A stretch of DNA of 63,689 nucleotides. It comes from Rhodovastum atsumiense (GTDB lineage: Bacteria; Pseudomonadota; Alphaproteobacteria; Acetobacterales; Acetobacteraceae). The position numbers were made by a program, and so were the translations under genes. The notes beneath the pieces were generated by a model. That model made no database searches. It was not told the origin of the DNA and saw nothing but the letters and a program-made list of their open reading frames with translations. The stretch lies in assembly GCA_026225115.1 (NCBI GenBank), contig JAMFSE010000015.1, positions 1 through 63,689 of the forward strand, given 5' to 3'. Within the stretch, counting starts at the first letter, position 1, and every line of letters starts with the position of its first letter. This document shows positions 1 to 63,689 of this stretch, in pieces.

Positions 1-127
1 AATCGGAGAGCTGCGGGCGTTTGTCCTCGCGGCTCTCAACGGCGCGGGAGAGCTGGGAGAGGGCGAGGACCGGCACCGCCAGTTCCTTGGCGATGGCTTT
101 CAGGCCCTGCGTGATCTGGCTGATTTC
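1..127. repeat. Terminal direct repeat, left copy (identical to window end)
   Basis: Bases 1-127 are identical, base for base, to bases 63563-63689. The repeat lies wholly within the dnaB coding sequence. Joining the two ends through it restores one uninterrupted dnaB reading frame. The length of exactly 127 equals a common de Bruijn k-mer size, so this is probably the overlap of a circular or looped assembly path and not two separate genomic copies. Confidence 0.95.
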
Positions 128-1207
128 CAGCACGCGGTTTTCCGGTTTGGTGCCGGCGGCCGGGCGCATCAGCTGCAGATAGTCGATGACGATCAGGCCG
201 AGGCCGTTGGTGCGTTTGAGGCGGCGGCAGCGGGTGCGCAGTGCCGAGAGGGTGAGCGCCGGGGTGTCGTCGATCAGCAGCGGCAATTGCGAGATGTCGC
301 GGGACACCGATACGAAATTGTCGAAGTCTTTTTGGTTGATTTCGCCGCGCCGGATGCGGTCGGCGGAGACGCGGGCTTCCTCAGCCAGCAGACGGGTGGC
401 TAGCTGCTCGGAACTCATTTCCAGCGAGAAGACGGCGATGGCCTGCTTGGCCATGGCGTTCGGGTTGTCGCGGCGGGCGTTGGCGAGCAGGGCTTTGGCG
501 GCGCCGAAGGCGATCTTGGTTGCGAGCGCGGTTTTGCCCATGCCGGGGCGGCCGGCCAGGATGATGAGATCCGAGGGGTGCAGGCCGCCCATTTTTTTGT
601 TGAGATCGCGCAGGCCCGTGTCGAGGCCGGAGACCGAGCCCTGGTTTTTATGCGCGGTGGCGGCGATGTCGATTGCCATCGTCAAAGCTTTTTCGAAGGT
701 GATCAGCCCGCCTTCGGCGCCGCCTTTGGTGGCGAGGTCGAACAGGGTTTGTTCGGCCGCCTCGATCTGGGCGATGCCGTTCAGCTCCGGCTCGGAGCCG
801 AAGGCGCGGTTGACGGTGACCTCGCCGATGTCGATCAGCTGGCGGCGGACCCAGGCGTCGTGGATGGCGCGGCCGTAATCGCCGGCGTTGATGATGCCGA
901 CCATGGCGCCGAGGAGCTGGGCGAGGTAGGCGGTGCCGCCGACTTCCTCCAGCACGCCGGTATGTTCGAATTCGGCGCGCAGCATCACCGGGTCGGCGAT
1001 CTGGCCGGCCTCGCAGCGCCGGGCGATGGACTGGTAGATGCGGCCGTGGATGGGGTCGGCGAAATGCTCCGGCGAGAGGAATTCGGAGACCCGTTCGTAG
1101 GCCTTGTTATTGGCCAGCAAGGCGCCCAGCAGCGCCTGCTCGGCCTGCACATTGCTTGGCGGTAGACGCTGGGATAGGCCCAGGAGCGGCGAATCGATGG
1201 AGTTCAT
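1..1207 (-). CDS. dnaB: Replicative DNA helicase DnaB, N-terminal and central part (gene continues across the window ends)
   Basis: DnaB is the hexameric helicase that unwinds DNA at the replication fork. The ATG is at 1205-1207 and the protein begins MNSIDSPLLGLSQRLPPSN. The N-terminal primase-interaction domain (about residues 17-120) is followed by the RecA-like core, with Walker A GRPGMGKT near residue 220 and Walker B-type LIVIDYLQLM near residue 355. The frame runs off base 1 and continues at 63562 down to a stop at 63285. The two parts total 1485 nt (494 aa), a normal DnaB length, so the gene is intact if the molecule is circular. No intein is seen. alr follows it downstream, an arrangement I expect in Acetobacteraceae. 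Confidence 0.97.
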   Translation of the reverse strand, partial: MNSIDSPLLGLSQRLPPSNVQAEQALLGALLANNKAYERVSEFLSPEHFADPIHGRIYQSIARRCEAGQIADPVMLRAEFEHTGVLEEVGGTAYLAQLLGAMVGIINAGDYGRAIHDAWVRRQLIDIGEVTVNRAFGSEPELNGIAQIEAAEQTLFDLATKGGAEGGLITFEKALTMAIDIAATAHKNQGSVSGLDTGLRDLNKKMGGLHPSDLIILAGRPGMGKTALATKIAFGAAKALLANARRDNPNAMAKQAIAVFSLEMSSEQLATRLLAEEARVSADRIRRGEINQKDFDNFVSVSRDISQLPLLIDDTPALTLSALRTRCRRLKRTNGLGLIVIDYLQLMRPAAGTKPENRVLEISQITQGLKAIAKELAVPVLALSQLSRAVESREDKRPQLSD

Positions 1208-1419
1208 CGGCTGAGCCTACGCTGGAATGGGGTCCGGAATCCATCGGCTGCCGGGTCCGTGCCGGGAAGAAAGCGGTTCATAAGGCCTGGGAAAAGCCGG
1301 GGATAGAAATGTATAAGATGTGCAACACACTGAGATATCAGGGGGACGAAGAAAATCGTAATTTTATTGCAACAAAGTGGGAACTCCGCAAGGTGACGCC
1401 AAATTGAAAGGGGGCAGCC

Positions 1420-1986
1420 ATGGACAAGATCGCGGACTATAACGGCAACCTGCTCAACCATGTTGAAACGCTCTATCGCCCGGGCGAGCGTGATCTGGCG
1501 GTCCGGCTGGTGGAGGCGCTTGGCTGCGCGGTCTCCGATACCGGCTTCAAGGGCGACGGCACGGAGAGCTTTCTTGCCGTGCATCCGAATCCGGATGATC
1601 GCAATATGCAGAACAACGCTTTCTATATGTCGCCGATGCGGCCGGAACAGCAGGTGATCGAGGCGCGTTTGCGGCGGCTGAGCGAGCAGGATGCTGAGCT
1701 GAAGGCGGGGCTGGATGGCTATCGGCAGGCGGCCAAAGTGGCGCCTTTCGGGATCTCACATTTCGCGCTGCGATACCCGACGGGGGCTGCCGTTCAGTCT
1801 GCGGCGGACAGGCTGGCGGAGGCGCTGGGCGCCACGCTTGGTGACCGTCTGAATATCCGGGTGTTCCGGCCGCAGGATGCGGATTCCGCGGGGAACACGC
1901 TCGTGCAGGGATTTGTCTATCAGGACGTTATCGTGTCGGGCTCTTTTCTCTATGGTCAGCTTATCGAATTGCAGAGCCAGCCATAG
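1420..1986 (+). CDS. Hypothetical protein, possibly VOC/glyoxalase-fold
   Basis: A 188-aa protein with a strong Shine-Dalgarno (GAAAGGGGG) ending about 6 nt before the ATG, so the start is well supported. I do not recognise the family with certainty. The pattern of an early HVETLY segment followed by LVEALGC, and a final YGQLIELQ, resembles the beta-alpha-beta-beta-beta modules of VOC (glyoxalase/dioxygenase) proteins, and a second module could begin at about GISHFALRY. No complete metal-ligand set can be assigned. It is divergent from dnaB, with 212 bp between the start codons, and ends 16 bp before the convergent DUF486 gene. Confidence 0.7.
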   Translation: MDKIADYNGNLLNHVETLYRPGERDLAVRLVEALGCAVSDTGFKGDGTESFLAVHPNPDDRNMQNNAFYMSPMRPEQQVIEARLRRLSEQDAELKAGLDGYRQAAKVAPFGISHFALRYPTGAAVQSAADRLAEALGATLGDRLNIRVFRPQDADSAGNTLVQGFVYQDVIVSGSFLYGQLIELQSQP

Positions 1987-2002
1987 CAGATTCGCCGCCC
2001 GC

Positions 2003-2347: not shown

Positions 2348-2364
2348 TCTGCTGTCCTTGTCAG

Positions 2365-3130: not shown

Positions 3131-3964
3131 ATGAACAACGTGCTTAACCCTGGGCTGCCGCCTTTCGTTCTCGGCAATCTGGCGCCGGGCTTCGCCGAAC
3201 TACGCTCCAACAATCTCGGGGTACGGCTGGCGATTTCGGCCGATGAGGTCGATGCCGTGCAGGCGCTGCGCTACCAGGTGTTTTATAACGAGATGGGCGC
3301 CAGGCCGGATACCGCAACGCTGTTGAGCGCCCGGGACAGCGATGAATTCGACGCCATCGCCGACCATTTATTGGTGGTGGACCATGATTTGGGCGCCGGT
3401 CCGGAGAGCGTGGTGGGCACCTACCGGCTGGTCCGTCAGAGCGCCGCCGCCAAGCTTGGGCGGTTTTATTCGGCCGGCGAGTACGATATTTCGCGGCTTG
3501 AGGACTTTCCCGGCCAGGTGCTGGAATTGGGGCGATCCTGCACCGCCCAGACCTATCGCTCGCGCGCCGTGATGCAGCTGCTCTGGCGCGGCATCGCCGC
3601 CTATGTGTTCCATTACGGTATTGAGCTGATGTTCGGCTGCGCCAGCCTGCACGGCACGGACCCAGACGCGCTGGCCGGCGAGTTGAGCTATCTGTACGCC
3701 AACCATCTGGCGCCGGAGGCGATCCGGCCGCGGGCTCTGGAACACCGGTATGTGGCGATGAACCGCTGTGACGTCAGCCTGCTGGATGCGCGGCAGATCA
3801 TGACGATGCTGCCGCCGCTGGTTAAGGGATATTTGCGGCTGGGCGGGTTTGTGGGCGACGGCGCGGTGATCGACCACCAGTTCAACACCACCGATATTGC
3901 GGTGATCGTGCAGACCGACCTGGTTACCGAAAAATACTACCGACACTACGAACGCTCCCGCTAG
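3131..3964 (+). CDS. olsB: OlsB-like GNAT acyltransferase (ornithine lipid synthesis)
   Basis: A 277-aa protein of the hemolysin-like GNAT group (Acetyltransf_5). OlsB transfers a 3-hydroxyacyl group from acyl carrier protein to ornithine, the first step of phosphorus-free ornithine lipids. Visible family features are VRLAISADEVDAVQALRYQVF near the N-terminus, the acidic patch DEFDAIADHLLV, LELGRSCTAQTYRS and the C-terminal DVSLLDARQIMTMLPPLVKGYLRLGG. The gene starts at the base after the fur-like stop, so expression is coupled to that regulator. olsA, its usual partner, is not in the window. The gene-name assignment is by family resemblance. Confidence 0.82.
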   Translation: MNNVLNPGLPPFVLGNLAPGFAELRSNNLGVRLAISADEVDAVQALRYQVFYNEMGARPDTATLLSARDSDEFDAIADHLLVVDHDLGAGPESVVGTYRLVRQSAAAKLGRFYSAGEYDISRLEDFPGQVLELGRSCTAQTYRSRAVMQLLWRGIAAYVFHYGIELMFGCASLHGTDPDALAGELSYLYANHLAPEAIRPRALEHRYVAMNRCDVSLLDARQIMTMLPPLVKGYLRLGGFVGDGAVIDHQFNTTDIAVIVQTDLVTEKYYRHYERSR

Positions 3965-4111
3965 CTGGGCTGTTTGAAAACGCGCTAGGCTGGCCATCTG
4001 AGGCGCCTGTCTGCGCTTCCGGTGCTCACGGCCTGTAGGCCGCTCCGCGCCGGTTCTTGACAGACGTCCCAGCTGACTCAGCCTAGCGTGTTTTGAAACA
4101 GCCTAGGGCCA
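3965..4111. repeat. About 145-bp nested fold-back (inverted repeat) element
   Basis: The outer arms at about 3967-3992 and 4079-4104 are 26-bp inverted repeats with 2-3 mismatches (left arm starts GGGCTGTTTGAAAACG). Nested inside are a GTCTG/CAGAC pair and a tight hairpin CGGCC-TGTA-GGCCG. Part of the inside (4011-4063) is shared with a second element at 40629-40679. The element fills the space between olsB and sspB. It looks like a MITE-like or REP-like element, or a structured 3' UTR, and contains no credible reading frame. Confidence 0.8.
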
Positions 4112-4238
4112 TGGGTTTTGGAAGGCGTTTCCTGATTTTTGCTTGGCTGCCGCATTGTGGACATGGGGGGTCTTAATTCGACCTATTTGCGGGAGTTTAT
4201 GGGGTGGGTTATGACGCCGGACGCTCGGAGTGAAACCC

Positions 4239-6424: not shown

Positions 6425-6819
6425 TGAAATTCACCGTCGACCGGATCGATCATGTGGTGATGACCTGCGCGGATCTGCAGGTGACCGCGGGCTGGTATCA
6501 GCGGGTGCTGGGGATGGAGCGCGAGGAATATGGCGGCAAAAATCGTACCGCTCTGCGGTTTGGGGCGGCGAAGATAAATCTGCATGAGGTGGGCCATGAG
6601 GTCTCCCCGCATGCGACGCTGGCGAAGCCCGGGACGCTGGATTTGTGTTTCGTTATTGCGGTTGGGCCGGAAGATGCGATTGCGCAGTTGCATGCCTGCG
6701 GGGTTTCCATTGAGCGTGGGCCGGTGTCGCGCATCGGCGCGCTGGGCGACATCATGTCGGTGTATTGCCGCGATCCGGATGGGAATTTGATTGAGCTGGC
6801 CTCGTATATGGGGGCTTAG
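6424..6819 (+). CDS. VOC-family glyoxalase-like protein
   Basis: A 131-aa single-domain VOC protein (glyoxalase I/bleomycin resistance fold). It begins FTVDRIDHVVMTCADL with metal-ligand His near residue 10, continues WYQRVLGMER and KINLHEVGHEVSPH, and ends RDPDGNLIELASY with the ligand Glu near residue 125. It resembles the group annotated as 'VOC family virulence protein', whose reaction is not established. The ATGA overlap with fumarase places it in the same transcript. A complete two-armed repeat follows immediately and probably terminates transcription. Confidence 0.88.
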   Translation: MKFTVDRIDHVVMTCADLQVTAGWYQRVLGMEREEYGGKNRTALRFGAAKINLHEVGHEVSPHATLAKPGTLDLCFVIAVGPEDAIAQLHACGVSIERGPVSRIGALGDIMSVYCRDPDGNLIELASYMGA

Positions 6820-6828
6820 CAAAGCGGT

Positions 6829-6969
6829 TGCTTCTTGAAAAAAGGCTGGCCGCCCGCACATCCGCAAAAACTTTTCTGAAACTGGGGTGCGGGCGTTGTT
6901 GCCGACACAGCCCATGGCCCGGATTAAAGAAGTCTTTTTGGTTCTTTTTCTTCAGAAAAAGAACTGCTT
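6829..6969. repeat. Two-armed palindromic repeat, family 1, copy A (full)
   Basis: A left T/A-rich arm (GCTTCTTGAAAAAAGG), a GC core (GGGCGTTGTTGCCGACACAG, then CCCATGGCCC) and a right arm with the perfect hairpin TTCTTTTTC/GAAAAAGAA, preceded by AGTCTTTTTG. The arms are inverted relative to each other. The core matches copies at 29503, 38208 and 42258. It fills the space between the glyoxalase-like gene and queA. Either arm could act as an intrinsic terminator. Confidence 0.85.
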
Positions 6970-7008
6970 GCTTGACCTTCGCATCAAACCCGCCCAACCA
7001 GCGCCGCC

Positions 7009-29481: not shown

Positions 29482-29502
29482 GAGTTTTCCGCTTTCAAAA
29501 CA

Positions 29503-29640
29503 AGCACTTCTTTTTCTGAAGAAAAAGAAGCAAAAAGACTTTTTTATACTGGGCCTCGGGCGTTGTCGCGGCCACAGCCCATGCCCCAGAAAAACAAAAG
29601 TTTTTTGGTTCTTTTTTTTAAAAAAGAACCTTTGCTTCAG
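29503..29640. repeat. Family 1 two-armed palindromic repeat, copy D (full)
   Basis: Left arm AGCACTTCTTTTTC/GAAAAAGAAG followed by CAAAAAGACTTTTTT. Core GGGCCTCGGGCGTTGTCGCG, then CACAGCCCATGCCCC. Right arm TTTTTTGGTTCTTTTTTTT/AAAAAAGAACC. The right arm overlaps the last codons and stop of ispA. It sits between ispA and tlyA and could terminate on either strand. Confidence 0.9.
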
Positions 29641-30548
29641 CTTTTTCTGGTTACCGTAAACTTGGCCAAAGCGCGCAGTAATTCTGCCTTGTCGCCGAAG
29701 CTTTCGAGATGCTGGGCGGCTTGCTCGGCTAAATGGGTGGCCTGGGCGCGGGCGCGTTCCAGGCCGAGGATGGAGACCATGGTGGCCTTGCCCTGGGCGG
29801 CGTCCTTGCCGGCGGTTTTGCCGAGTTCCTCGGCGGAGCCTGCTTCGTCCAGCACGTCGTCGTAGATTTGAAAGGCGCCGCCGAGTTCGCGGCCGTAGGC
29901 GGCGATGAAATGGCGCTGCTGTTGCGAGGCGCGGCCGAGGATGGCCCCGGCTTCGGCGCTGAACTGGATCAGGCGGCCGGTCTTCAGCGCCTGCAGCCGG
30001 GTGATTTCCGGGCCGGAAAGGGTTTTGCCTTCCGCCAGCATGTCGATCATCTGGCCGCCGACCATGCCGCGGGCGCCGGTGGCAAGGGCGAAGGCGGTGA
30101 CCAGCTCGCAGCGGGCTTCGGCGTCGGCATGGGTGTCTTCCTCGGCCAGCACTTCGAAGGCACGGGTCTGCAGGGCGTCGCCGGCGAGGATCGCGGTCGC
30201 CTCGTCGAAGGCTTTGTGACAGCTTGGCTTGCCGCGGCGCAGGTCGTCGTCATCCATGGCCGGCAAATCGTCATGCACCAGCGAATAGGCGTGCAGCATT
30301 TCCACCGCCGCAGCCACGCGGGCGGCGCAGGTTTGGTTGACTGCGAATAATTGCGCGGTCTGCATCACCAGGAACGCCCGCATCCTTTTGCCGCCGCCCA
30401 GCACCGCGTAGCGCATCGCCTCGATCAGCCGGGCTTCGGCGGCTTCAGGCACCGGCAGCAGCGCGTCCAGCTGGGCCTCGACCAGCCTTGCGGTTTCTTC
30501 CATTGCGCCGGCCAGCCCATCCGGTTTGGGTACGATATCCAACGCCAT
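29637..30548 (-). CDS. ispA: Farnesyl diphosphate synthase (geranyltranstransferase)
   Basis: A 303-aa short-chain polyprenyl synthase that condenses IPP with DMAPP and GPP to give FPP for quinones, bactoprenol and hopanoids. The first aspartate-rich motif is HDDLPAMDDDDLRRG (about residue 95), with the two-residue insertion typical of bacterial FPP synthases, and the second is QIYDDVLDE (about 230). GGGKRMRAFLV binds substrate. The start follows the xseB stop directly (1-bp gap). Its 3' end is overlapped by a repeat arm. Confidence 0.96.
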   Translation of the reverse strand: MALDIVPKPDGLAGAMEETARLVEAQLDALLPVPEAAEARLIEAMRYAVLGGGKRMRAFLVMQTAQLFAVNQTCAARVAAAVEMLHAYSLVHDDLPAMDDDDLRRGKPSCHKAFDEATAILAGDALQTRAFEVLAEEDTHADAEARCELVTAFALATGARGMVGGQMIDMLAEGKTLSGPEITRLQALKTGRLIQFSAEAGAILGRASQQQRHFIAAYGRELGGAFQIYDDVLDEAGSAEELGKTAGKDAAQGKATMVSILGLERARAQATHLAEQAAQHLESFGDKAELLRALAKFTVTRKS

Positions 30549-34035: not shown

Positions 34036-34052
34036 GTTTTCTCGTTCGGTTT

Positions 34053-34081: not shown

Positions 34082-34099
34082 CGAGGTTTGCTACGGGGC

Positions 34100-36336: not shown

Positions 36337-36347
36337 CGCTTCGGGCG

Positions 36348-38203: not shown

Positions 38204-38207
38204 GTGA

Positions 38208-38341: not shown

Positions 38342-38345
38342 TTCC

Positions 38346-39419
38346 TTAAATCATTTTAGCTCGCGCTGCTTGCGCTTCAAGCTTCCAAATATATGCGATG
38401 ATGTCGGCGACTGCTTTATAGTGCTCAACCGGAATTTCGCTTTCCACGTCCAGTTGGTGCAAAGCGCGCGCCAGTGGCGGGTTGGGCACCAGCGGTACGC
38501 GGCGCTCAGTGGCGAGTTCTCTGATGCGGGCCGCCATTTCGCCCATGCCTTTGGCGATGAGTTTCGGGGCCGCCTGGCTGTGACGATCGTAGGCGAGGGC
38601 CACCGCGTAATGGGTGGGGTTGGTTATGACCACGGTGGCGTTTGCCATTGCCTTTTTTAGATTTTGCCGAGTGCGGGCGTTGCGGATAGCTTTCAATTTT
38701 GCCTTGATCTGCGGGTTGCCTCCGGAATCCTTGTTTTCCTGTTTCACGTCCTGCAGGCTCATGCGCACCGAATTGCCGAAGCTTATCTGGCTCCATGCTA
38801 CGTCCAGCATTGCGATAAAGCCTTGCACCACGATCAGTGCGGCCGCGATGGCGACTATGCCGGTTTTGATAATTGCCGGCGCCGCATTCATGTTTTCCCG
38901 CAGGGCATCGGGCAGATTGCGGAGTTGCGCCGATAATGCCAGCCAGAGTGCGAAGCTCATTACGCCGATTTTCAGGATGGATTTCAGCGCATCGATGCCG
39001 TGATTGGCACTGAATAATTTGAAGAAGCCGGACAGCGGATTGATGCGCGAGAGATCCGGTTTGAAAGCGGCAAGGCGCAGGCTGAGGCGGGTTTGCCCTA
39101 GCACGATGGCAGCGCCGGTGACCGCCACGGCCAGCATCAGCGGCAGCAGCGCATCCGCCCAGATTTGCGCGCATTTGCGCAAAGCCGCGGTCAGCGCCGG
39201 GGGTGAATCGATGCTGCCGGCGCTGGCCAATATTGTGCCCAGGCGTAGTGCTGCGGTGCGGCCGAGTTGCGGCGCAAGCATCGCGATGATCAGGAGTGCG
39301 GCGCAGAGATTCGCGAATGAGGCAAGTTCGTGGGAGACCGGCGCTTGGCCTTCGGATTGCGCGCGGCTCAGCCGCGCCGGCGTGGCCGCTTCGGTGCGGC
39401 TGTCGTCGCCTTCGGCCAT
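38346..39419 (-). CDS. flhB: Flagellar export gate protein FlhB
   Basis: A 357-aa membrane protein of the flagellar type III export gate, which switches substrate class after autocleavage. Four membrane helices (about residues 30-50, 90-110, 145-165 and 185-210) precede the cytoplasmic FlhBc domain, with the self-cleaving NPTH motif in TVVITNPTHYAVALAYD (about residue 265). The opening DDSRTEAATPARLSRAQSEG is canonical. It lies downstream of fliQ and fliR. A 17-bp perfect hairpin sits immediately upstream of its ATG, with no recognisable Shine-Dalgarno. Confidence 0.96.
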   Translation of the reverse strand: MAEGDDSRTEAATPARLSRAQSEGQAPVSHELASFANLCAALLIIAMLAPQLGRTAALRLGTILASAGSIDSPPALTAALRKCAQIWADALLPLMLAVAVTGAAIVLGQTRLSLRLAAFKPDLSRINPLSGFFKLFSANHGIDALKSILKIGVMSFALWLALSAQLRNLPDALRENMNAAPAIIKTGIVAIAAALIVVQGFIAMLDVAWSQISFGNSVRMSLQDVKQENKDSGGNPQIKAKLKAIRNARTRQNLKKAMANATVVITNPTHYAVALAYDRHSQAAPKLIAKGMGEMAARIRELATERRVPLVPNPPLARALHQLDVESEIPVEHYKAVADIIAYIWKLEAQAARAKMI

Positions 39420-39421
39420 TA

Positions 39422-39478: not shown

Positions 39479-39489
39479 GCAAAACATAC

Positions 39490-40275
39490 TTAGCCCGTCA
39501 AAAGCCGGGTCATGCCGGCGGCGGCGGCGCGTTGCCAGGCGGTGGCGATGGCGGTGGCCAGCAGCGCCAGCAATGCGAGGCCGCCCAGGGTTTGCCCCGG
39601 CATGGCCACCATGAAGATCTGCAATTGCGGCACCAGTTTCGAGATCACCGCAAGTCCGGCCTGCCAGAGCAATCCGGCCAGCAGAAAAGGCGTTGCCAAT
39701 TGCACCCCCATGGCAAAACTTTGCGTGGTGAGCATTTCCGCGATGTGGAGCGCCGAGCCGGCGGGAAAGCCGAGGCCAACCGGGAGGATATGATAGCTGG
39801 CCACCAGGGCCTGCAGCGGTAATGCGTATAATCCTGTCGCCAGCACCATGGTTGTTGCGAACAGGCCGAAGACGGTGCTGAGCAGCGTGCTTTCGGCGCC
39901 CAGGTCCTGGCTTGGCGTGATGACGCTGGAAAGGCCGATCTGATAGGAGATGATCTGCCCCGCGATCGGCAGCGCCAGCACGAACAGCCGCGCCATCAGG
40001 CCGAGCCAAATGCCGATGGCCAGCTCATGCGCCAGCAATGCCGCCAGCAGAATGAAACCGGGTTGCGCGGCGGGGATGGCGATGCCCGGCATGGATATGC
40101 TCGGCATTAGGAGCAAGGTAAGCGCCACGGCGAAACCGGCGCGCAAAGTCGGCGGCACCACGGTTTCGCCGACGCCTGGCAACAGCATCACGACGCCGCC
40201 GATCCGCGCCAGCGCGAGCGCGAAGGCGAATGCCAGCGGGAGCAACGCATGCAGCAGAGTCGGGTCGGCGATCAT
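39490..40275 (-). CDS. fliR: Flagellar export gate protein FliR
   Basis: A 261-aa membrane protein with about six helices, a component of the FliP-FliQ-FliR export channel. It shows the family segments RIGGVVMLLPGVGETVVPPTLRAGFAVALTL, ISYQIGLSSVITPSQDLGAE and LPVGLGFPAGSALHIAEM. It overlaps fliQ by 4 nt. Its 3' end is followed after 70 bp by flhB. Confidence 0.94.
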   Translation of the reverse strand: MIADPTLLHALLPLAFAFALALARIGGVVMLLPGVGETVVPPTLRAGFAVALTLLLMPSISMPGIAIPAAQPGFILLAALLAHELAIGIWLGLMARLFVLALPIAGQIISYQIGLSSVITPSQDLGAESTLLSTVFGLFATTMVLATGLYALPLQALVASYHILPVGLGFPAGSALHIAEMLTTQSFAMGVQLATPFLLAGLLWQAGLAVISKLVPQLQIFMVAMPGQTLGGLALLALLATAIATAWQRAAAAGMTRLLTG

Positions 40276-40544
40276 GAGCCGCCGGCGCGGATGATCTGGT
40301 TGAAAATGAAATGGGTGAAACTGTCGAGTGCCGCGACCATCGAGCCGCCGAGGAGCATGAGTGCCGCAAACATTGCAGCGACCTTCGGCAGGAAAACCAA
40401 CGTGGCTTCGTTGATCTGGGTAACGGCCTGAAAGATCGAAATCAAAAGCCCGGCCGCCAGCGCCGCCAGCAAAGGCGGCCCCGCCAGCCTCGCCGCCAGC
40501 ATCGCGGCAGTATGCAAAACAAGCGCGATCGACGGCGGGTCCAT
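40272..40544 (-). CDS. fliQ: Flagellar export gate protein FliQ
   Basis: A 90-aa, two-helix membrane protein of the flagellar export gate. The ATG at 40542-40544 gives MDPPSIALVLHTAAMLAARL, and the loop GLLISIFQAVTQINEATLVFLPK is the FliQ signature. Upstream on the same strand there is no fliP but purF, so this trio is detached from the rest of the flagellar genes, at least within this window. Confidence 0.93.
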   Translation of the reverse strand: MDPPSIALVLHTAAMLAARLAGPPLLAALAAGLLISIFQAVTQINEATLVFLPKVAAMFAALMLLGGSMVAALDSFTHFIFNQIIRAGGS

Positions 40545-40628
40545 GTGCTGCCCTTTTGGCAAAATGACGATATTGAGGCGCAAAGAGATTGTTTCAGAAG
40601 TCGGGCTGGTGAGTCGCATGGCGGTGAT

Positions 40629-40679
40629 TGTCGAGCACCGGAGCGGAGCGTACTTCAGTACGTGAGCACCGGAGCGCAG
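40629..40679. repeat. Family 2 palindromic repeat
   Basis: The hairpin CGTACT-TC-AGTACG is flanked by two direct copies of GAGCACCGGAGCG. In reverse orientation it matches 4011-4063, sharing GCGCT-CGGTGCTCACG, a short hairpin and CGCTCCG-CCGGT. It lies between the purF stop and fliQ start and could terminate purF transcription or be a REP-type element. Confidence 0.8.
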
Positions 40680-40721: not shown

Positions 40722-42206
40722 TCAGCTCAGTTCGGCGAGCAGACTGAGTTGCGGGTCGCGCGGCTCGATGTTGTCGGTGAGCGAGATCGGGTATTCGCCG
40801 GTGAAGCAGGCATCGCAAAAGGCCGGCGCGGCGGGGTCGCGGCCGTCGCGGCCCAGCGCGCGGTACAAACCGTCGATGGAGATGAAAGCCAGGCTGTCAA
40901 CGCCAATGAGCTTTGCCATGGCGGCGATATCGTTTCGCGCTGCCAATAATTTGCTGCGCTCCGGCGTGTCGATGCCGTAGAAGCAGGAATGGGTGGTGGG
41001 CGGCCCGGCGATGCGCATATGCACCTCGGCGGCGCCGGCGGCGCGCACCATTTCGACGATTTTCTGGCTGGTGGTGCCGCGCACGATCGAGTCATCGACC
41101 AGGATCACGCGTTTGCCCTCGATGATCGCGCGATTGGCCGAATGCTTGAGGCGCACGCCGAGATGCCGGATCTGGTCGGTCGGCTCGATAAACGTGCGGC
41201 CGACGTAATGGTTTCGGATGATGCCAAGCTCGAAGGCAATGCCGCTGGTTTCGGCAAAACCCATGGCGGCCGGCACGCCGGAATCCGGCACCGGCACGAC
41301 AACGTCGGCCGCAACGGGGGATTCGCGCGCCAGTTGCGCGCCGATCAACTTTCGCGCGTTGTAGACGGAAATGCCCTCCATCACGGAATCCGGCCGCGCG
41401 AAGTAGATATATTCGAACACGCAAAAACGCGGGGCCAATACGGCAAAAGGTTTGACGCTGCGCAGCCCGCTATCGTCGATGAGGATGATCTCGCCCGGTT
41501 CGACATCGCGGACGAAATCGGCGCCGACGATGTCCAGCGCGCAGGTCTCGGATGCCAGCACCCAGCCCACCCTGCCGTCGGCGCCATGCGTGCGCCCGAG
41601 GATCAGCGGCCGCACGCCCAGCGGGTCGCGCACGCCGATCAGATGCTCATTGGTCAGCGCCACCAAAGAATAGGCGCCGACCACCTGCTTGATCGCGTCG
41701 ATCAGCCGGTCGATGACATTGGCGTACAGGCTGATGGCGATGAGGTGAACGAACACCTCGCTGTCCATGGTCGATTGAAACAGGCAGCCGCGGCGGGTCA
41801 GCGCCTTGCGCAAGGTATGCGCGTTGGTGAGGTTGCCGTTATGCCCGACGGCGAAGCCGCCGAATTCGAATTCGGCAAACAGCGGCTGCACATTCCGCAA
41901 TACCGTCTCGCCGGTGGTGGCGTAGCGATTATGCCCGATGGCGCGCGTGCCGGGCAGGCTGGCCATTATTTTGGCGTCGCCGTAGTTATCGCCGACCAGA
42001 CCCAGGCCCTTATGGGAGTGGAACCGCACGCCGTCATGAGTGACGATGCCGGTGGCTTCCTGCCCGCGATGCTGCAAGGCGTGCAGCCCCAAAGCGGTGA
42101 TGGCGGCGGCATCCGTGACATTCCAGACCCCGAAGACACCGCATTCCTCATGAGGCTTGTCATCATCAATCAAGAGCTTCGATTCCGTTGCGCTGTGTGA
42201 GGTCAC
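40722..42206 (-). CDS. purF: Amidophosphoribosyltransferase (glutamine PRPP amidotransferase)
   Basis: Catalyses the first committed step of purine synthesis, PRPP plus glutamine to phosphoribosylamine. The 494-aa protein has a 21-residue propeptide ending HEE before the catalytic Cys of [10 protein letters not shown], and the glutaminase segments [15 protein letters not shown] and [10 protein letters not shown]. The PRPP loop is [19 protein letters not shown]. It lies downstream of radA and cvpA on the same strand, separated from cvpA by a full family 1 repeat. Confidence 0.97.
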
Positions 42207-42257
42207 GTAAGCTTATGACACAACGATGTCGAGCTATATCGGGTATGAGAAAAAGAC

Positions 42258-42403
42258 AGTGCTTCTTTTTCTGAAGAAAAAGAAGCAAAAAGAGTTTTTC
42301 ATGTCGGGTCATGGGCGTTGGCGCCGTCACAGCCCATGCCCCAGTGTCAAAGAAGTTTTTTGGTTTGCCGGCGGCTAGCCTTTTTTCAAAAAAGAACTTC
42401 TTC
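42258..42403. repeat. Family 1 two-armed palindromic repeat, copy F (full)
   Basis: Left arm AGTGCTTCTTTTTC/GAAAAAGAAG plus CAAAAAGAGTTTTTC. Core GGGCGTTGGCGCCGTCACAG, then CCCATGCCCC, the best-conserved example. Right arm diverged, with CCTTTTTTCAAAAAAGAACTTCTT. It fills the gap between cvpA and purF and would interrupt that co-transcribed pair unless read through. Confidence 0.92.
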
Positions 42404-42406
42404 CAC

Positions 42407-43006
42407 TTATTGCGTGTTCGGCGTCAGCGCGCTTCCCGATACCGGCTGCTGCATCAGCGTGTTGGCGCTGGGGGCGCCGGGCTGCGGCAAGGCGTTGACC
42501 TTGGGCTGGTAGTCCGGCGGCAATAGCGAGACCAGCATCATCGCCCCGTTATGGGCGTAAGGCAGGAAGCGCGCGTTCATGACCGGGGCGGGCCATTCCG
42601 CCGGCACCAGAAATAACGACAGGCCGATATAGGCAAGGCAGACGATGACGCCGCCGCGGATGACGCCAAAGACGATGCCGAGCGTGCGGTCCAGCGCGGA
42701 CAGGGCGGAATCCCGCACCAACCCGCCGATCCAGGCGCTGATGATGCTGAGCAGGATCAGCAAAGCGATGAACACGATGCCGGCGGAAACGGGCACGATG
42801 AAATTCTTCGCGCTGACCACGCTGGCGACATAGGGTACGACATATTGATAGCCGCTGAGCGCGCCCAGTGCCGCGCCCACCCAGGCGCCGACGCCGAGCA
42901 CCTCGCGCACGAACCCGCGCACCAGCGAGAACAGCGCCGATAATACCACGACCCCGATTGCCGCGCCGTCAACCCAGGTCAAAAGATATCGCCATTTCGA
43001 AAGCAC
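42407..43006 (-). CDS. cvpA: CvpA-family membrane protein
   Basis: A 199-aa protein with four membrane helices in the first 125 residues (VDGAAIGVVVLSALFSLVRG, GAALGALSGYQYVV, FIALLILLSIISAWIGG, TLGIVFGVIRGGVIVCLAY) and a Pro-rich tail. Homologues are linked with colicin V production or envelope homeostasis and neighbour purF in many proteobacteria. The probable start is GTG at 43004-43006. radA lies 24 bp upstream. Confidence 0.92.
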   Translation of the reverse strand: MLSKWRYLLTWVDGAAIGVVVLSALFSLVRGFVREVLGVGAWVGAALGALSGYQYVVPYVASVVSAKNFIVPVSAGIVFIALLILLSIISAWIGGLVRDSALSALDRTLGIVFGVIRGGVIVCLAYIGLSLFLVPAEWPAPVMNARFLPYAHNGAMMLVSLLPPDYQPKVNALPQPGAPSANTLMQQPVSGSALTPNTQ

Positions 43007-43030
43007 CCAGTCCAGTATTTAAAAAGCTGA

Positions 43031-44458
<1,428 letters not shown>

Positions 44459-55310: not shown

Positions 55311-57088
55311 TCATTCAGCAGCGGAGGCGGCTTGCTGCGCGACCGTGGCACCGCCGATCGTGAACTCCCCAACCAGCCCGGCAAGGCCGGTTGCCTCCGT
55401 GGCCAGGTGACGGCTGGCAGCGGTTGTCTGTTGCACCATCGCCGCATTCTGCTGGGTCATCCGGTCCATCTCATTGATGGTCTGGTTGATCTGCTGCAAT
55501 CCGATGGCCTGTTCGCCGGCGGCGCGCGCAATTTCACCGACCAGCTCGCTGAGCTGGTGCACCTCATCGCCGATGCTCAACAGGGTACTGCCGGTGCTGT
55601 CCACCAGTTTCACGCCGCTTGCCACCTGCTGTCCGGAAGCGGAGATGATGGATTTATTTCCTTTGCCGCGTCCGCGGAGCGCTGCGCCAGGGTCCGCACT
55701 TCGGTCGCCACGACGGCGAAACCGCGTCCGGCATCGCCGGCGCGCGCCGCCTCGATCCCGGCGTTGAGCGCCAGCAGATTGGTCTGGAAGGCAATTTCGT
55801 CGATCACGCCGATGATTGTTGTGATCTGGCTGGATGATGTCGCAATGGCGCCCATGGCATCGGCGGCGTTGCGCACCACCACGCCGGATGCCTCCGCATG
55901 GGTGCGTGCCTTGATCGCGAGTGCTGCCGCGGTTTGTGCGCTGGCTGAACTGCTGCGGACGGTCGCGGTTAGTTCATCCAGCGCCGCGGATGTCTCCTCA
56001 AGCTGGGCTGCCTTCTGTTCGGTCCGGTGTGAAAGATCGTTGGCGGCGTGCAGGATTTCTCCGGCGCCGGTTTGCACATTGCCGGTGGTGCCGGCGATTT
56101 GCCGCATGGTTTCCTGCATTTTGGAAACAGCATCGTTGAAATCCATTCGCAGGGTTTTGTAATCGGCACTGAACCAGGTCTGGATATGGCAGGTAAGATC
56201 GCCGTTGGAAAAGCGGACCAGACCGTTCGCCAGCGCATCGACCACGAATTTCTGCGCTGCCGCAGCCTCGGCGCGCTCGGCCTCGACCTGTTTGCGCGCC
56301 GTCTCCGACGCCGCCCGTTCCCTCGACAAATCCTCTTCCGCCGCCTGGCGTTGGATGATCGCATCCCGGAAGATTTTTACCGAATGCACCATGTGACCGA
56401 TCTCGTCGTGGCGGGTCTGATACGGAACGTCGGTTTCGTAATTGCCGGCGGCCAGCGCCTCCATGTAGTCGCCCAATCGCTTGACCGGCGTCAACACCCG
56501 GCGGCTCATCATCCATAGGCCGGCAATGATGCCGCACAGCAACAGCACCGAGCCGGTCAGGACGACTGCGGTGTAGCGCTTGATCTGATGCGCGGCGCGG
56601 GCCTGGTTGTCGGCGTCGAACGCGGTCGCCTGGTTGACGATATCGTTCACCACCGTGCGATGCGCCTGGTAGATCCGGTTCAGCACCGCCATCGATTGCG
56701 TGACCGCCGCGGGGTTGCCGGATTTGATCGCCGGCAGCACCACGCCTTCCAGCTGGCGCCAGAATTGTTGCACGTCGGGATCGGACTTACGGTCCAGCTC
56801 CGCTCTGATATCGGCGGGCAGACCGCTCTGGCTCCAATAGCCGTGGCGGGCGCTATATTGCTGGTGGAGGGTCGCCAGTTCGGCGGTGTAGATGCTGAGA
56901 TTGCCGGGATCCCGGCTGGCCAGATTGGCATCCAGATTGGCCTCCACCACGTAGAGCGGCGGCGGTTCGATATCGCCGACCAACCCCTGGCCAAGCGCGA
57001 TCCGGTTATAGACCGGACCTGTGACCTCAAGCTCGGTCAGCGCGATCATGTTCAGTGTTACGACCGCGGTGAGCCCGAGGCAAAGCAT
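55311..57088 (-). pseudogene. Methyl-accepting chemotaxis protein, frameshifted
   Basis: The gene reads as a normal 592-codon chemoreceptor except for a -1 frameshift near 55648. The upstream frame ends [13 protein letters not shown] then goes off into [14 protein letters not shown], while the downstream frame resumes with [20 protein letters not shown] and the normal C-terminus. One missing A in the GAAATAAATCC run explains it. The rest is intact: membrane helix near 186-206, HAMP ([20 protein letters not shown]) and signalling tip [20 protein letters not shown]. The N-terminus is also abrupt (see findings). It could be a sequencing or homopolymer error, phase variation or true decay. It is divergent from the HD-GYP gene. 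Confidence 0.85.
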
Positions 57089-58475: not shown

Positions 58476-59027
58476 TTATCGGCGGCGTTTGCCGCGCCAG
58501 GCTATCCAATCGACGGGTTCGGTGGATTTAACCGCGACGGCGGTGGAGAGGCCCCGTTCCGCGAATAGCACCAGATTTGTTGAACTGTGACGCGCGCTGG
58601 GGACGAGCAGACCGTCGAATTCAAGGAAATGTGCGGCGGCTGCTAAAGCTTGGGTCGCGGTGTAGTCGAAGGATTCGTATCTGGAGATGTCGACGCCGAG
58701 AGGTGCGAGGCTTTCGATACTGGCGAATTTGAGTGTGCGCTCGCTCCGCGCGGTCAGTTTATGAATTTCGTGCTGCATGCGGCTGGGCCAGACTGGTTCG
58801 AGGGAGAGCCGGTAGCCGATTTCGGCTAGCGCGCCTTCGCGCTCCAGGCTGGTGTAGAGAACTTCTACCGTGCCGCCTGGGCTCCAGCGTCCGTTCGCTG
58901 CCGAGAAGCGGGTTGCATCGAAGCCGACGCGGGTGATGCGCCAGACGGTATTATCGAACCGTATTGGCGTCAGGGCGTCCAGGGCGTCGAGGGTGGCGCG
59001 ATCGTGGACGCGGCCCGTTTGGGCCAT
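58476..59027 (-). CDS. RES-domain toxin (NAD+-phosphorylase type)
   Basis: A 183-aa RES protein. The opening VWRITRVGFDATRFSAANGR followed by WSPGG and VLYTSLEREGALAEIGYRLS contains the conserved Arg, Tyr and Glu, with a conserved Ser later (SARHSSTNLVLF). Characterised members (MbcT) degrade NAD+ by phosphorolysis, and activity here is inferred. It starts 2 bp after the stop of the Xre-type antitoxin, as usual for the antitoxin-first RES-Xre operon. Confidence 0.93.
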   Translation of the reverse strand: MAQTGRVHDRATLDALDALTPIRFDNTVWRITRVGFDATRFSAANGRWSPGGTVEVLYTSLEREGALAEIGYRLSLEPVWPSRMQHEIHKLTARSERTLKFASIESLAPLGVDISRYESFDYTATQALAAAAHFLEFDGLLVPSARHSSTNLVLFAERGLSTAVAVKSTEPVDWIAWRGKRRR

Positions 59028-59029
59028 GG

Positions 59030-59368
59030 CTAGGTGTAGGACCCCTCGTTCAGGCTTTCGATCACCCCCAGCACCTCATCGGCGCGGCCGTTATGGATAA
59101 GATCGATCGCGCGCTCGCCGTTGAGCAGGCGGTGCTTGGAATAGAGCCAGACGCGGGTTTCCTCGGGGTCGTATAGTTCCGCCAGGCGGTCCACGATGTA
59201 GCGGAGATCGGAAATTAAAAGCTGGGTTTTGGGGTGCGGGAAGGAGGTGCCGGCTGTCCAACGGGATACGGTAGCCGGGGACACGGCAGCGATATTCGCG
59301 ACGTCGGTGCCTTTGAGGCCGCCCCTTTGTTTGAGATCCTCGAGGAGATTTGCGACTGCGCTTGCCAT
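59030..59368 (-). CDS. Xre/MbcA-type antitoxin of the RES toxin
   Basis: A 112-aa protein with an N-terminal HTH (about residues 17-45, GLKGTDVANIAAVSPATVSR, then W) and the C-terminal MbcA/ParS/Xre domain VWLYSKHRLLNGERAIDLIH followed by ADEVLGVIESLNEGSY, which inserts its end into the RES active site. It precedes the toxin with a 2-bp gap. It is likely to repress its own promoter in the region upstream (59369-59619). Confidence 0.93.
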   Translation of the reverse strand: MASAVANLLEDLKQRGGLKGTDVANIAAVSPATVSRWTAGTSFPHPKTQLLISDLRYIVDRLAELYDPEETRVWLYSKHRLLNGERAIDLIHNGRADEVLGVIESLNEGSYT

Positions 59369-60586: not shown

Positions 60587-61354
60587 TTACTTCCGCAGCG
60601 CCATTTGGATTGGGCCTTCGCGGCGGCCGTGGGTGAATTGGTTTACGACGGGGTTGTCGCTGGTCAGCAGGTCCGGGGCGGGGCCGGTCCAGGTTACTTT
60701 GCCCTGGTAGAGCATGGCGGCCTGGTCGCCGATGCGCATGGCGCTCGCCATGTCGTGGGTGATGGCGATCGAGGTGCTGCCCAGGCGTTTGACGCAGTCG
60801 ACGATCAGGCCGTCGATGACGGCGCCCATGATGGGGTCGAGGCCGGTGGTGGGTTCGTCGAAGAACATGATGGCGGGGGCGCTGGCGATGGCGCGGGCGA
60901 GGGCGACGCGTTTTTGCATGCCGCCGGAGAGTTCGGCGGGGGAGAGCAGGGCGACATCCGCGCCTAGGCCGACCTGGGAGAGGATTTCGATGGCTTTGTC
61001 CTTGGCCTGGCCGCGCTTGATTTTTTTCTCGGCGAGCAGGCCAAAGGCGACGTTTTCCCAGACGGGGAGGCTGTCGAAGAGGGCGCCGTTCTGGAACAGC
61101 ATGCCGATCTGGCTGCGCAGTTCGTGGGCGCGGGCGCGGGAGGCTTTGAGGACGTCCTCGCCGTCGATTTCGATGCTGCCGGAATCCGGCGTGATCAGGC
61201 CGAGGATGGATTTGATCAGCACGGATTTGCCGGTGCCGGAGCCGCCGATGACGACCATGGCGGTGCCGGTGGCGACGTCGAGATCCACACCGTCGAGCAC
61301 GCGTTTTTCGCCGAAGGATTTTCTCAACCCGCGGATTTTGATTTTGATGCTCAT
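60587..61354 (-). CDS. mlaF: ABC transporter ATP-binding protein MlaF (phospholipid/toluene tolerance type)
   Basis: A 255-aa ATPase of the Mla system that moves phospholipids between the membranes to keep outer-membrane asymmetry. It has Walker A GGSGTGKSVLIKSI (about residue 40), Q-loop GMLFQNGALFDSL, signature ELSGGMQKRVALARA and Walker B AIMFFDEPTTGLDP. It overlaps mlaE by 4 nt. The substrate-binding MlaD gene, normally next, is absent: the sequence runs into a repeat arm. Confidence 0.95.
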   Translation of the reverse strand: MSIKIKIRGLRKSFGEKRVLDGVDLDVATGTAMVVIGGSGTGKSVLIKSILGLITPDSGSIEIDGEDVLKASRARAHELRSQIGMLFQNGALFDSLPVWENVAFGLLAEKKIKRGQAKDKAIEILSQVGLGADVALLSPAELSGGMQKRVALARAIASAPAIMFFDEPTTGLDPIMGAVIDGLIVDCVKRLGSTSIAITHDMASAMRIGDQAAMLYQGKVTWTGPAPDLLTSDNPVVNQFTHGRREGPIQMALRK

Positions 61355-62139
61355 AGCACGCGGAACAGCAGCTGGGTGAGGATGTAGTCCAGCGCCAGGA
61401 TGAGGATCGAGGCGGAGACGACGGCGGAGGTGGTGGCGGCGCCGACACCCTGGGCGCCGCCTTTGGAGCGGTAGCCGTTGAAGCAGCCCATCAGCGCGAT
61501 GATGAAGCCGAAGACGGCGGATTTGATCAGGCCGGAGATGACGTCGTTCGCCTGCAGCTCGGAGAAGCTATTGATGAGATAGGTGGTCGGGTTGAAGCCG
61601 AGTTTCAGGGTGGCGACCAGGAAGCCGCCGGCGACGCCGAGGATGTCGGCGACGATGACCAGCAGCGGCAAAGCGATGATGCCGGCCAGCAGGCGCGGGG
61701 CGACGAGGTATTTCATCGGCTCGGTGGAGAGGGTGGAGAGCGCGTCCACCTGGTCGGTGACGCGCATGGTGCCGAGTTCGGCAGCCATGGCGGCGCCGGC
61801 GCGGCCGGAGACCATGAGGCCGGCCAGAACGGGTCCGAGTTCGCGGGTGACGGAGAGCACGACGACGGCGGCGATCTGGCTTTCGGCGTTGAAGCGGGAG
61901 AAGCCGGTGTAGGATTGCAGGGCCAGCACCATGCCGGTGAACAGGGCCGTCAGCGCCACGACGGGGAGCGAGTAGAAGCCGATTTCCATCAGGCTGCGGC
62001 CGAGCTGGCGCGGGTAGAAGGGCGGGCGGAAGATATGGGACAGGCCGGAGGCGGCGAAGATGCCGAGCTCGCCCAGCAGTCCAAGCGCGTTCAAGGCCGC
62101 CGCCCCGATGGCGGCGATAAAATTCAAAATGGAATTCAT
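61351..62139 (-). CDS. mlaE: ABC transporter permease MlaE
   Basis: A 262-aa inner-membrane permease with about five helices. Characteristic motifs are QLGRSLMEIGFYSLPVVALT, LGPVLAGLMVSGRAGAAMAA and ELGTMRVTDQVDALSTLSTE. It is the partner of MlaF. It overlaps alr upstream by 4 nt and mlaF downstream by 4 nt, so the genes are co-translated with the racemase. Confidence 0.95.
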   Translation of the reverse strand: MNSILNFIAAIGAAALNALGLLGELGIFAASGLSHIFRPPFYPRQLGRSLMEIGFYSLPVVALTALFTGMVLALQSYTGFSRFNAESQIAAVVVLSVTRELGPVLAGLMVSGRAGAAMAAELGTMRVTDQVDALSTLSTEPMKYLVAPRLLAGIIALPLLVIVADILGVAGGFLVATLKLGFNPTTYLINSFSELQANDVISGLIKSAVFGFIIALMGCFNGYRSKGGAQGVGAATTSAVVSASILILALDYILTQLLFRVL

Positions 62140-63227
62140 GGGGTCTGCTGGCCCCCTATGTAGTGCCGGTGATAGCGGCGGCCGAGCGAGGTGAGGATTT
62201 CATAGCCGTTGGTCCCGGCTTCGGCCGCGATGGCATCGGCGTCATGGCCTGGGCCAATCAGCTCCAGGCTGTCGCCGGGTTGTGCGTCGGGGTGGCCGGT
62301 TACGTCGAAGGTGGCGAGGTCCATGGATACCCGGCCTACCAGGGGCACCGGGTGGCCGTCAAAGCGGGCGGTGGCGCGGTTGGAGAGCGAGCGGAGGTAG
62401 CCATCGGCATAGCCGGCGGCGATTGTGGCGATGTGGCTGCGGCGGGGTGCGGTCCAGGTGGCATTGTAGCCGACGGTTTCTCCGGGTTCGATGGTGCGGA
62501 TTTGCAGGATGCGGGCGGTGAGGCGGACCGCCGGGCGCATCGGGTTGGCGGCGTCTGGGGTGGGATTGAGGCCGTAGAGCGCAGCACCTGGGCGGGCGAG
62601 GTCGGCCTGAAAGCTCAGGCCGAGAAACATGCCGGCGGAGTTGGCGAGGCTGGTTTTGGCGGCGGGGAATTTGGGACGCAGCGCGTTGAAGCGTTGGAGC
62701 TGGGCGAAGTTGGTTTCGGCCTCGGGGATTTCGGAGCTGATCAGATGGCTTAGCAGAATTTTGACATCGATGCCGTCGAGGAGCGCGGGGTCGTTTTCGA
62801 GGGCGGCCATCTCAGTGGGCGTCATGCCGAGGCGGGACATGCCGGTGTCGGCGTGGAGGATGGCCGGGAGTTTGCGGCCGTGGCGGGTGACTTCTTTGCG
62901 CCAGCGCTCCACATCGCCAAGCGAGGTCAATACCGGGGTCAGGTCGCGCGCCACGAATTCGCTCGCCTCGCCGGGCAGAATGCCGTGGAGCACGGCTAGC
63001 ATGGCGCCTGGGAGCAGCGGGCGCAGCGGCAGGGCTTCGCTTAGATGGGCGACGAAGAAGTTTTGGCAGCCGGCGTTCAGCAGGGCCGGGGCGACCTGAT
63101 TAGCGCCTAAGCCGTAGGCGTCCGCTTTTACCGCCGCGCCGGTTTCGCCGGGATGCATTGCGTCCAATTGGCGCCAGTTTGATGCGATGGCGTCGAGGTC
63201 GATTTCTAGTGCGGTGGGGCCGGTCAT
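62136..63227 (-). CDS. alr: Alanine racemase
   Basis: A 363-aa PLP enzyme that converts L- to D-alanine for peptidoglycan. It starts MTGPTALEIDLDAIASNWRQ, with PLP-Lys in GAAVKADAYGLGANQ (about residue 36) and the catalytic Tyr in VGYNATWTAPRRSHIATIAAGYADGY (about 255). LARPGAALYGLNP and PLVGRVSMDLATFDVT are also typical. A frame-open extension to 63263 crosses a palindromic repeat and is unlikely. It lies 57 bp after dnaB. Confidence 0.96.
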   Translation of the reverse strand: MTGPTALEIDLDAIASNWRQLDAMHPGETGAAVKADAYGLGANQVAPALLNAGCQNFFVAHLSEALPLRPLLPGAMLAVLHGILPGEASEFVARDLTPVLTSLGDVERWRKEVTRHGRKLPAILHADTGMSRLGMTPTEMAALENDPALLDGIDVKILLSHLISSEIPEAETNFAQLQRFNALRPKFPAAKTSLANSAGMFLGLSFQADLARPGAALYGLNPTPDAANPMRPAVRLTARILQIRTIEPGETVGYNATWTAPRRSHIATIAAGYADGYLRSLSNRATARFDGHPVPLVGRVSMDLATFDVTGHPDAQPGDSLELIGPGHDADAIAAEAGTNGYEILTSLGRRYHRHYIGGQQTP

Positions 63228-63234
63228 TGAAGAT

Positions 63235-63270
63235 GATGGGTAACGCGCTGCGCGCTCACCCATCCTACGG
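63235..63270. repeat. Palindromic repeat between dnaB and alr (GGGT...ACCC class)
   Basis: GATGGGT (63235-63241) pairs with ACCCATC (63258-63264), with a GC-rich AACGCGC-TGCGCGCT interior. It is followed by CTACGG. In the reverse direction it reads CCGTAGGATGGGT..., a layout common in proteobacterial intergenic repeats. The stack at 60458-60498 is of the same general type. Confidence 0.7.
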
Positions 63271-63284
63271 TGCGGGGCTTTGGG

Positions 63285-63689
63285 TTAGCCATGCACGGTG
63301 TCGAGGTCGGCGAAGCGGGTGAACTCGCCTTCGAAGAACAGGTCGATTTTGCCGGTGGGGCCGTGCCGCTGTTTGGCCAGGATGAGTTCAGCCTTGTTGT
63401 AGACAGCTTCCATATCGCTCTGCCATTTCTGGTGGGCGTCGTGGAATTTGGTTTCGTTTTCGAAGGCGATGATTTTCGGCTCTTTCTGCTGCATGTAGTA
63501 TTCGTCGCGGTAGACGAACATCACGACGTCGGCATCCTGCTCGATGGTTCCGGACTCACGCAAATCGGAGAGCTGCGGGCGTTTGTCCTCGCGGCTCTCA
63601 ACGGCGCGGGAGAGCTGGGAGAGGGCGAGGACCGGCACCGCCAGTTCCTTGGCGATGGCTTTCAGGCCCTGCGTGATCTGGCTGATTTC
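63285..63689 (-). CDS. dnaB: Replicative DNA helicase DnaB, C-terminal part (gene continues from window start)
   Basis: The C-terminal part of the DnaB ATPase. It includes [20 protein letters not shown], the arginine-finger region [20 protein letters not shown] and the conserved end [20 protein letters not shown]. The TAA is at 63285-63287. The frame enters from the right end of the window. Bases 63563-63689 duplicate bases 1-127, so the non-redundant part is 63285-63562 (278 nt). Together with 1-1207 it makes one 494-codon gene, intact across the joined ends. Confidence 0.97.
63563..63689. repeat. Terminal direct repeat, right copy
   Basis: Identical to bases 1-127 (starts AATCGGAGAGCTGCGGGCGT and ends CTGGCTGATTTC). 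See the left copy. Confidence 0.95.

What the first reader, a model, noticed from the sequence alone, without database searches (positions are those of the whole stretch)
1..63689. Window ends share 127 identical bases: a circular or tandem molecule, with dnaB intact across the join
Bases 1-127 equal bases 63563-63689 exactly. Removing one copy gives 63,562 bp, and dnaB then reads 1207 + 278 = 1485 nt, an exact multiple of three and a normal DnaB of 494 aa. A chance overlap would not preserve frame and family length. The possibilities are: a real 63.6-kb circle (excised segment or unstable amplification), one unit of a tandem duplication, or a loop in the assembly graph where a dnaB segment recurs. 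127 is a standard assembler k-mer length, so an assembly loop must be considered first.
Basis: partly seen in the sequence, partly recalled or inferred. Interest (0 to 1): 0.85.

Follow-up and report, generated by a model that had tools for sequence, protein, structure and literature searches.

The report
Probable false circle from genome assembly
A 63.6-kb piece of an Acidocella genome looks like a circle because the assembly software most likely glued its two real ends together at a short repeated sequence, so it is probably an ordinary linear stretch of chromosome and not a new kind of molecule.

Summary
In detail: bases 1-127 equal 63563-63689, and dnaB reads through the join as 494 aa. 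The window is one whole contig (C14) of a 149-contig draft genome, genus Acidocella by its relatives. 127 is this assembly's k-mer overlap: two other contig pairs share exactly 127 bp. So C14 is a loop in the assembly graph. The dnaB join is genuine, but the loop is closed by a doubtful join elsewhere, at 40,633-40,668 between purF and fliQ. A 24-bp element there, taken from the start of contig C35, occurs with up to one mismatch at five places in the genome; a second contig, C9, also starts in it. C35 opens with crcB, which follows purF in 6 of 6 Acidocella loci where purF was found. C9 opens with fliE-flgC-flgB, which adjoin fliQ-fliR-flhB in 3 of the 8 flagellar loci fetched. The true order is therefore most likely C9-[fliQ...dnaB...purF]-C35, a linear chromosomal segment falsely closed at a repeat. 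Contig ends start in such repeats 8-11 times more often than random positions. Real amplification or excision between the two repeats gives the same geometry and cannot be excluded without reads.

The parts
1..127 (.). Left copy of the 127-bp terminal overlap (inside dnaB)
   Evidence: Identical to 63563-63689; other contig pairs of this genome also overlap by exactly 127 bp
63563..63689 (.). Right copy of the 127-bp terminal overlap
1..1207 (-). dnaB, 5' part (start codon at 1207)
   Evidence: Pfam DnaB and DnaB_C; reads on into 63562..63285 as a 494-aa protein
63285..63689 (-). dnaB, 3' part (stop at 63285)
   Evidence: Pfam DnaB_C
40633..40668 (+). Short repeat element at the inferred false junction; its first 24 bp are shared with the starts of contigs C35 (exact) and C9 (one mismatch)
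40272..40619 (-). fliQ: one inferred true end of the segment; expected neighbour fliE is at the start of contig C9
   Evidence: Pfam Bac_export_3; order in G019, G020, G022
39490..40275 (-). fliR
   Evidence: Pfam Bac_export_1
38346..39419 (-). flhB
   Evidence: Pfam Bac_export_2
40722..42206 (-). purF: other inferred true end of the segment; expected neighbour crcB is at the start of contig C35
   Evidence: Pfam GATase_7/Pribosyltran; crcB next to purF in 6 of 6 Acidocella loci in which purF was found
42407..43006 (-). cvpA
   Evidence: Pfam Colicin_V; radA-cvpA order kept in the 9 congener loci examined
43031..44458 (-). radA
   Evidence: Pfam and relatives
60587..63263 (-). mlaF-mlaE-alr, next to dnaB as in relatives
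   Evidence: Pfam; same order in Acidocella congeners
29502..29642 (.). Member of the dispersed palindromic repeats in which contig ends of this assembly are enriched (others near 3963, 6818, 38199, 42262, 46140, 60524)

Best explanation
C14 is an ordinary linear stretch of about 63.6 kb of an Acidocella chromosome that the assembler closed on itself. Its real ends are at purF and fliQ. Both carry near-identical copies of a short hairpin-type repeat (25 bp shared with C35, 36 bp with one mismatch shared with C9). The true connections purF-repeat-crcB (contig C35) and fliE-repeat-fliQ (contig C9) were lost, and the assembler joined fliQ to purF through the repeat instead. The graph then held a closed loop, printed as a contig cut at an arbitrary k-mer that happens to lie in dnaB, with the 127-bp k-mer repeated at both ends. 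Shown: the overlap, k = 127, the element shared by the window junction and two contig starts, and the gene orders. Inferred: that the fliQ-purF join is false, the step at which it arose (small-k contig carried upward, or gap closing), and local loss of coverage.
For: 127-bp overlaps elsewhere in the assembly. Own-genome searches showed no identical stretch of 127 bp or more outside C14; the best outside hits are chemoreceptor-type (MCP) paralogues at about 68-74% and repeats of up to about 160 bp at 75-89%. The 24-mer taken from the window and the C35 start occurs, with up to 1 mismatch, 5 times in 3.67 Mb; of the 3 sites not used to choose it, one is base 1 of contig C9. C9 and C35 starts dovetail by 24 bp with 1 mismatch, and each follows the window on one side of the junction only. 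C9 begins with fliE-flgC-flgB running toward its end, then divergent fliP; the order fliP/flgB-flgC-fliE-fliQ-fliR-flhB is present in G019 and G022, and flgC-fliE-fliQ-fliR-flhB in G020. C35 begins with crcB and a porin; radA-cvpA-purF-crcB-porin is the order in G002, G006, G007, G009, G010 and G011. Contig ends start within 10 bp of a repeat match in 8 of 66 cases against 55 of 5000 random positions; 6 of 64 without C9 and C35. Pfam found no replication initiator, partition, relaxase or phage structural gene in 59 of the 60 called genes, 7 of which matched no family.
Against: The same geometry (a hybrid repeat on a closed segment, both flanks ending at the repeat) would follow from real recombination between direct repeats. 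The repeat is much shorter than k = 127, so k-mers spanning fliQ-repeat-purF had to come from reads or from smaller-k contigs; which is not known. This reading needs two lost native junctions plus one false join, whereas a complete excision would need only one lost junction. The junction element does not fold unusually well (z -0.62). A looser test of contig ends near repeats gave no enrichment (3 of 56 against 46 of 1000). In Acidocella congeners the flagellar genes are a distant set without the fliE-fliQ order (0 of 3 congener loci), so the C9 side rests on other families. Each own-genome DNA search scored only the best 40 candidates.
Confidence: 0.87

Rival explanations
1. Tandem amplification, or a circle coexisting with the chromosomal copy, produced by recombination between the two direct copies of the short repeat that flank the segment in the chromosome.
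For: The repeat copies are in direct orientation at the two inferred ends, the geometry needed. The junction is present as contiguous sequence. The repeats at C35 and C9 differ at one base (C against T at position 21), as two native copies would; the artefact reading explains this equally well.
Against: It needs the native junctions to be lost from the assembly (C35 and C9 share only 25 and 36 bp with the window, not 127) while the recombinant one was kept, so the recombinant form would have to be the commoner one. The artefact reading also needs the native junctions lost, so this point does not separate the two; what does is that an assembly error needs no new biology. No read depth is available.
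Confidence: 0.08
2. A real, complete 63.6-kb extrachromosomal circle that carries the cell's only dnaB, along with alr, purF, radA, tgt and queA.
For: Closed loop in the graph with k-mer overlap and no shared 127-mer seen in other contigs; dnaB found nowhere else in the genome.
Against: No replication or partition gene recognised among 59 of 60 genes, though 7 matched no family. The chromosome should then carry a C35-repeat-C9 scar in one contig, but C35 and C9 are separate and disagree at one base of the shared 24 bp (a single base near contig ends). It would split the fliE-fliQ order. Matching blocks lie on large contigs in relatives, for example dnaB and radA on one 607-kb contig of G007.
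Confidence: 0.02
3. The loop arises because dnaB or a dnaB segment is repeated in the genome.
For: The overlap lies in dnaB.
Against: The first 1,200 bp match only themselves and the 127-bp end copy; DnaB_C is found above its cut-off only at the two ends of this contig.
Confidence: 0.01

Closest known systems
Falsely circular contigs caused by repeats (warned of in MIUViG, PMC6871006; one case of false circularization told in PMC8172020)
   Same: A partial genome printed as a closed contig whose ends overlap exactly; repeats are the cause named in both papers (passages seen)
   Different: [quoted passage not shown] here it is only about 24-36 bp, far shorter than k. [quoted passage not shown]
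Terminal k-mer overlap of circular contigs from de Bruijn assemblers (recalled; k tested here by the 127-bp overlaps of other contigs)
   Same: Overlap length equals k
   Different: Usually read as a sign of a complete plasmid or phage; here gene order speaks against that reading

Membership tests
Assembly-graph loop (artefact) | Terminal overlap length equals the assembler's k | tested here: met
   Exactly 127 bp; C5/C22 and C27/C39 also overlap by exactly 127
Assembly-graph loop (artefact) | An internal adjacency contradicted by gene order, lying in a repeat | tested here: met
   fliQ|purF at 40,633-40,668; expected partners fliE and crcB are at the starts of C9 and C35, in the same element
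Assembly-graph loop (artefact) | Reads cross the native junctions and not the loop junction | not testable with these tools
   No reads available
Circular plasmid or chromid | Own replication or partition genes | tested here: not met
   None recognised by Pfam (E <= 0.001) in 59 of 60 called genes; 7 of the 59 matched no family
Circular plasmid or chromid | Related plasmids hold the region | tested here: not met
   6.1 kb around the junction: 87 plasmid records match, 0 over 80% or more of it; the 5 rows listed are 1.5-4.6-Mb replicons matching 36-40% of it at 68.5-70.2%, within 40,773-44,259, the purF-radA side
Tandem duplication or amplification | Neighbouring contigs share k-mers with both ends of the repeated unit | tested here: inconclusive
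   No 127-bp identity to other contigs in the stretches searched, but an undisturbed chromosome would leave such overlaps or continuous contigs too, so the native junctions are missing under either reading
Tandem duplication or amplification | Raised read depth | not testable with these tools
   No coverage values

The most novel reading that the evidence does not exclude
The segment from fliQ through dnaB to purF really does recombine between two direct copies of a 24-36-bp hairpin element, giving a 63.6-kb circle or tandem amplification that carries the cell's only replicative helicase, so the copy number of dnaB and other core genes would be switchable.
Probability: 0.1. Interest if true: 0.7.

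Novelty: not a real feature. Interest (0 to 1): 0.1.

Why it matters
An exact k-mer overlap plus an intact gene across the join can look like proof of a circle. Here both are present, yet the contig is most likely a closed-up chromosomal fragment. The check that exposed it is simple: look for the join on the far side of the loop, and for other contigs that start in the same short repeat. A plasmid finder that trusts terminal overlaps could call this contig a dnaB plasmid.

Tried and rejected
Recurrent dnaB as the cause of the loop: rejected. A branch at the contig ends shared with other deposited contigs: none found. Synteny of the window against stretches of G007, G010 and G017 around dnaB: only dnaB-alr-mlaEF and, in G010, the ftsJ-polyprenyl-synthase block matched closely; gene order differs among these relatives, so simple collinearity could not place the break. 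In relatives an 866-aa gene and rplI stand on the 5' side of dnaB; own rplI lies on contig C42, but the window is contiguous there, so I read this as a rearrangement. A first test of whether contig ends lie within 300 bp of the repeats gave no enrichment (3 of 56 against 46 of 1000). The stricter test, made afterwards (match starting within 10 bp of the end), did: 8 of 66 against 55 of 5000, or 6 of 64 without C9 and C35, which prompted adding the junction element. GC skew was not informative. The plasmid search gave partial matches only. Paper searches: listings seen; passages read in PMC6871006, PMC8172020 and PMC4719071. PMC4719071 ties Illumina errors, not coverage loss, to inverted repeats, so loss of coverage at the repeat is my inference. 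I also dropped a chance estimate that had counted C35, from which the pattern was taken.
Full report
Observation. The 127-bp identity of the two window ends is real and is the only exact terminal overlap among lengths 1 to 399. The window is the whole of contig C14 in a 3.67-Mb, 149-contig genome. DnaB read across the join has 494 residues and aligns through the join with DnaB of Acidocella aquatica (414 of 495 positions equal, stop included). The best named match is A. aquatica at 85% DnaB identity (records of the window's own genome may be left out there). Relative G009, of the same genus, is probably that record: its contig C79 has the same length, 76,368, and dnaB lies at the same place (inference).

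What the 127 bases mean. Among 58 ends of 39 own contigs, C14 included, three exact overlaps of 20-399 bp were found, all of length 127: C5/C22, C27/C39 and the window with itself; C30 and C31 also start with the same 30 bases. So 127 is the assembler's k, and C14 is a loop in its graph. Searches of the window against its own genome showed no other identical stretch of that length (each scored the best 40 candidates; 63,501-63,562 was not queried). The loop therefore shows no branch to another deposited contig. The position of its cut, inside dnaB, then carries no biological meaning (inference from how such assemblers print loops, recalled).

Content. Of 60 called genes, 59 were scanned with Pfam (55,311-55,625 was not). 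They look like chromosomal genes: dnaB, alr, mlaEF, radA, cvpA, purF, fliQ-fliR-flhB, ftsJ, a polyprenyl synthetase, tgt, queA, fumarase, sspB, fur. No replication initiator, partition, relaxase or phage structural gene was recognised; 7 of the 59 matched no family. No tRNA and no Rfam match were found.

Where the loop is falsely closed. In A. aquatica (G009) purF is followed by two genes whose best matches, at 60-62%, among the own sequence then in hand (39 contigs, most in part) lie at the very start of own contig C35. C35 begins with 25 bases that also stand in the window just downstream of purF. A search of the whole own genome for the 24-base core with up to one mismatch gave 5 sites: the window junction and base 1 of C35, from which the pattern was taken, then base 1 of C9 and two internal sites in C64 and C83 (the reversed control pattern gave 0). 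For one of three further sites to fall on a contig end by chance (298 ends in 3.67 Mb) the odds are about 2.4e-4 by my arithmetic. C9 opens with fliE, flgC and flgB running toward its end, then divergent fliP (Pfam, in which FlgB and FlgC are named by domain and order). The window side begins with fliQ-fliR-flhB.

Gene-order test. Ten Acidocella relatives had a radA match; nine of these loci were fetched (G005 was not). purF was found beside cvpA in 6 (G002, G006, G007, G009, G010, G011), and crcB followed purF in all 6. In the other 3 (G001, G003, G004) no purF match was found in the stretch. Eight flagellar loci were fetched: fliE stands next to fliQ-fliR-flhB in 3 (G019, G020, G022). G025 ends inside fliR, G024 has no fliE match, and the three congeners (G004, G006, G009) carry a distant set without that order. 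G019 and G022 show the complete order including divergent fliP. Thus the fliQ end of the window expects C9 and the purF end expects C35, and both contigs start in the very element that joins fliQ to purF.

Artefact or recombination. The geometry is what recombination between direct repeats would also give. Against a complete excised circle: it would leave one scar joining C35 to C9, but these contigs are separate and disagree at one of the shared 24 bases (one base near contig ends, weak), and the circle would hold the only dnaB without a recognised replication gene. Against a tandem array or coexisting circle there is no direct evidence here: the native junctions are missing from the assembly under that reading and under the artefact reading alike. 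I prefer the artefact because it needs no new biology and because this assembly tends to break at such repeats: 8 of 66 contig ends start within 10 bp of a repeat match against 55 of 5000 random positions (6 of 64 without C9 and C35). A looser test made first gave no enrichment (3 of 56 against 46 of 1000). Other short dovetails between ends exist: C2/C43 55 bp with no mismatch, C15/C34 33 bp with one, and an 18-bp self-palindrome at C8. The junction element itself does not fold unusually well (z -0.62).

Verdict. The overlap is real and technical; dnaB is intact because that join is true; the circle is most likely false. Confidence 0.87. What would change it: read depth, or reads over the three junctions, which I could not obtain.

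Literature. MIUViG (PMC6871006, passages) warns that repeats can make partial genomes assemble as circular contigs. PMC8172020 (passages) reports one case of false circularization at a repeat too long for the reads, and asks for an exact end overlap of at least 100 nt that is longer than any other repeat. C14 would probably pass that rule, since its other repeats found are inexact, which shows that the rule alone is not enough.

Noticed in passing
38346-40619 and contig C9 (L135:108-2477): FlhB scores higher against five other families (163-219 bits) than against the 11 Acidocella congeners searched (112-145 bits), though identities overlap (30-36% and 31-35%); the flgBC-fliE-fliQR-flhB order is that of other families. 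Perhaps a lineage-specific flagellum or a replacement.
   Followed up: partly
3963-4119, 6818-6987, 29502-29642, 38199-38349, 42262-42402 and elsewhere: Palindromic interspersed repeats of about 100-160 bp, mostly 75-89% alike, dozens of copies across the genome.
   Followed up: partly
33000-36350: Low-GC stretch (0.53 at 33,001-36,000) with an AAA ATPase and a phasin between ROK and a Y-family polymerase gene; those two are adjacent in G006, G010 and G018.
   Followed up: no
58476-59368: RES-domain protein next to a small protein with a weak helix-turn-helix match, looks like a RES/Xre toxin-antitoxin pair (pairing recalled).
   Followed up: no
1207-2610: Upstream neighbours of dnaB (DMT_6, TusA, then Fur) differ from those in congeners (866-aa gene and rplI in A. 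aquatica); rplI is on own contig C42.
   Followed up: partly
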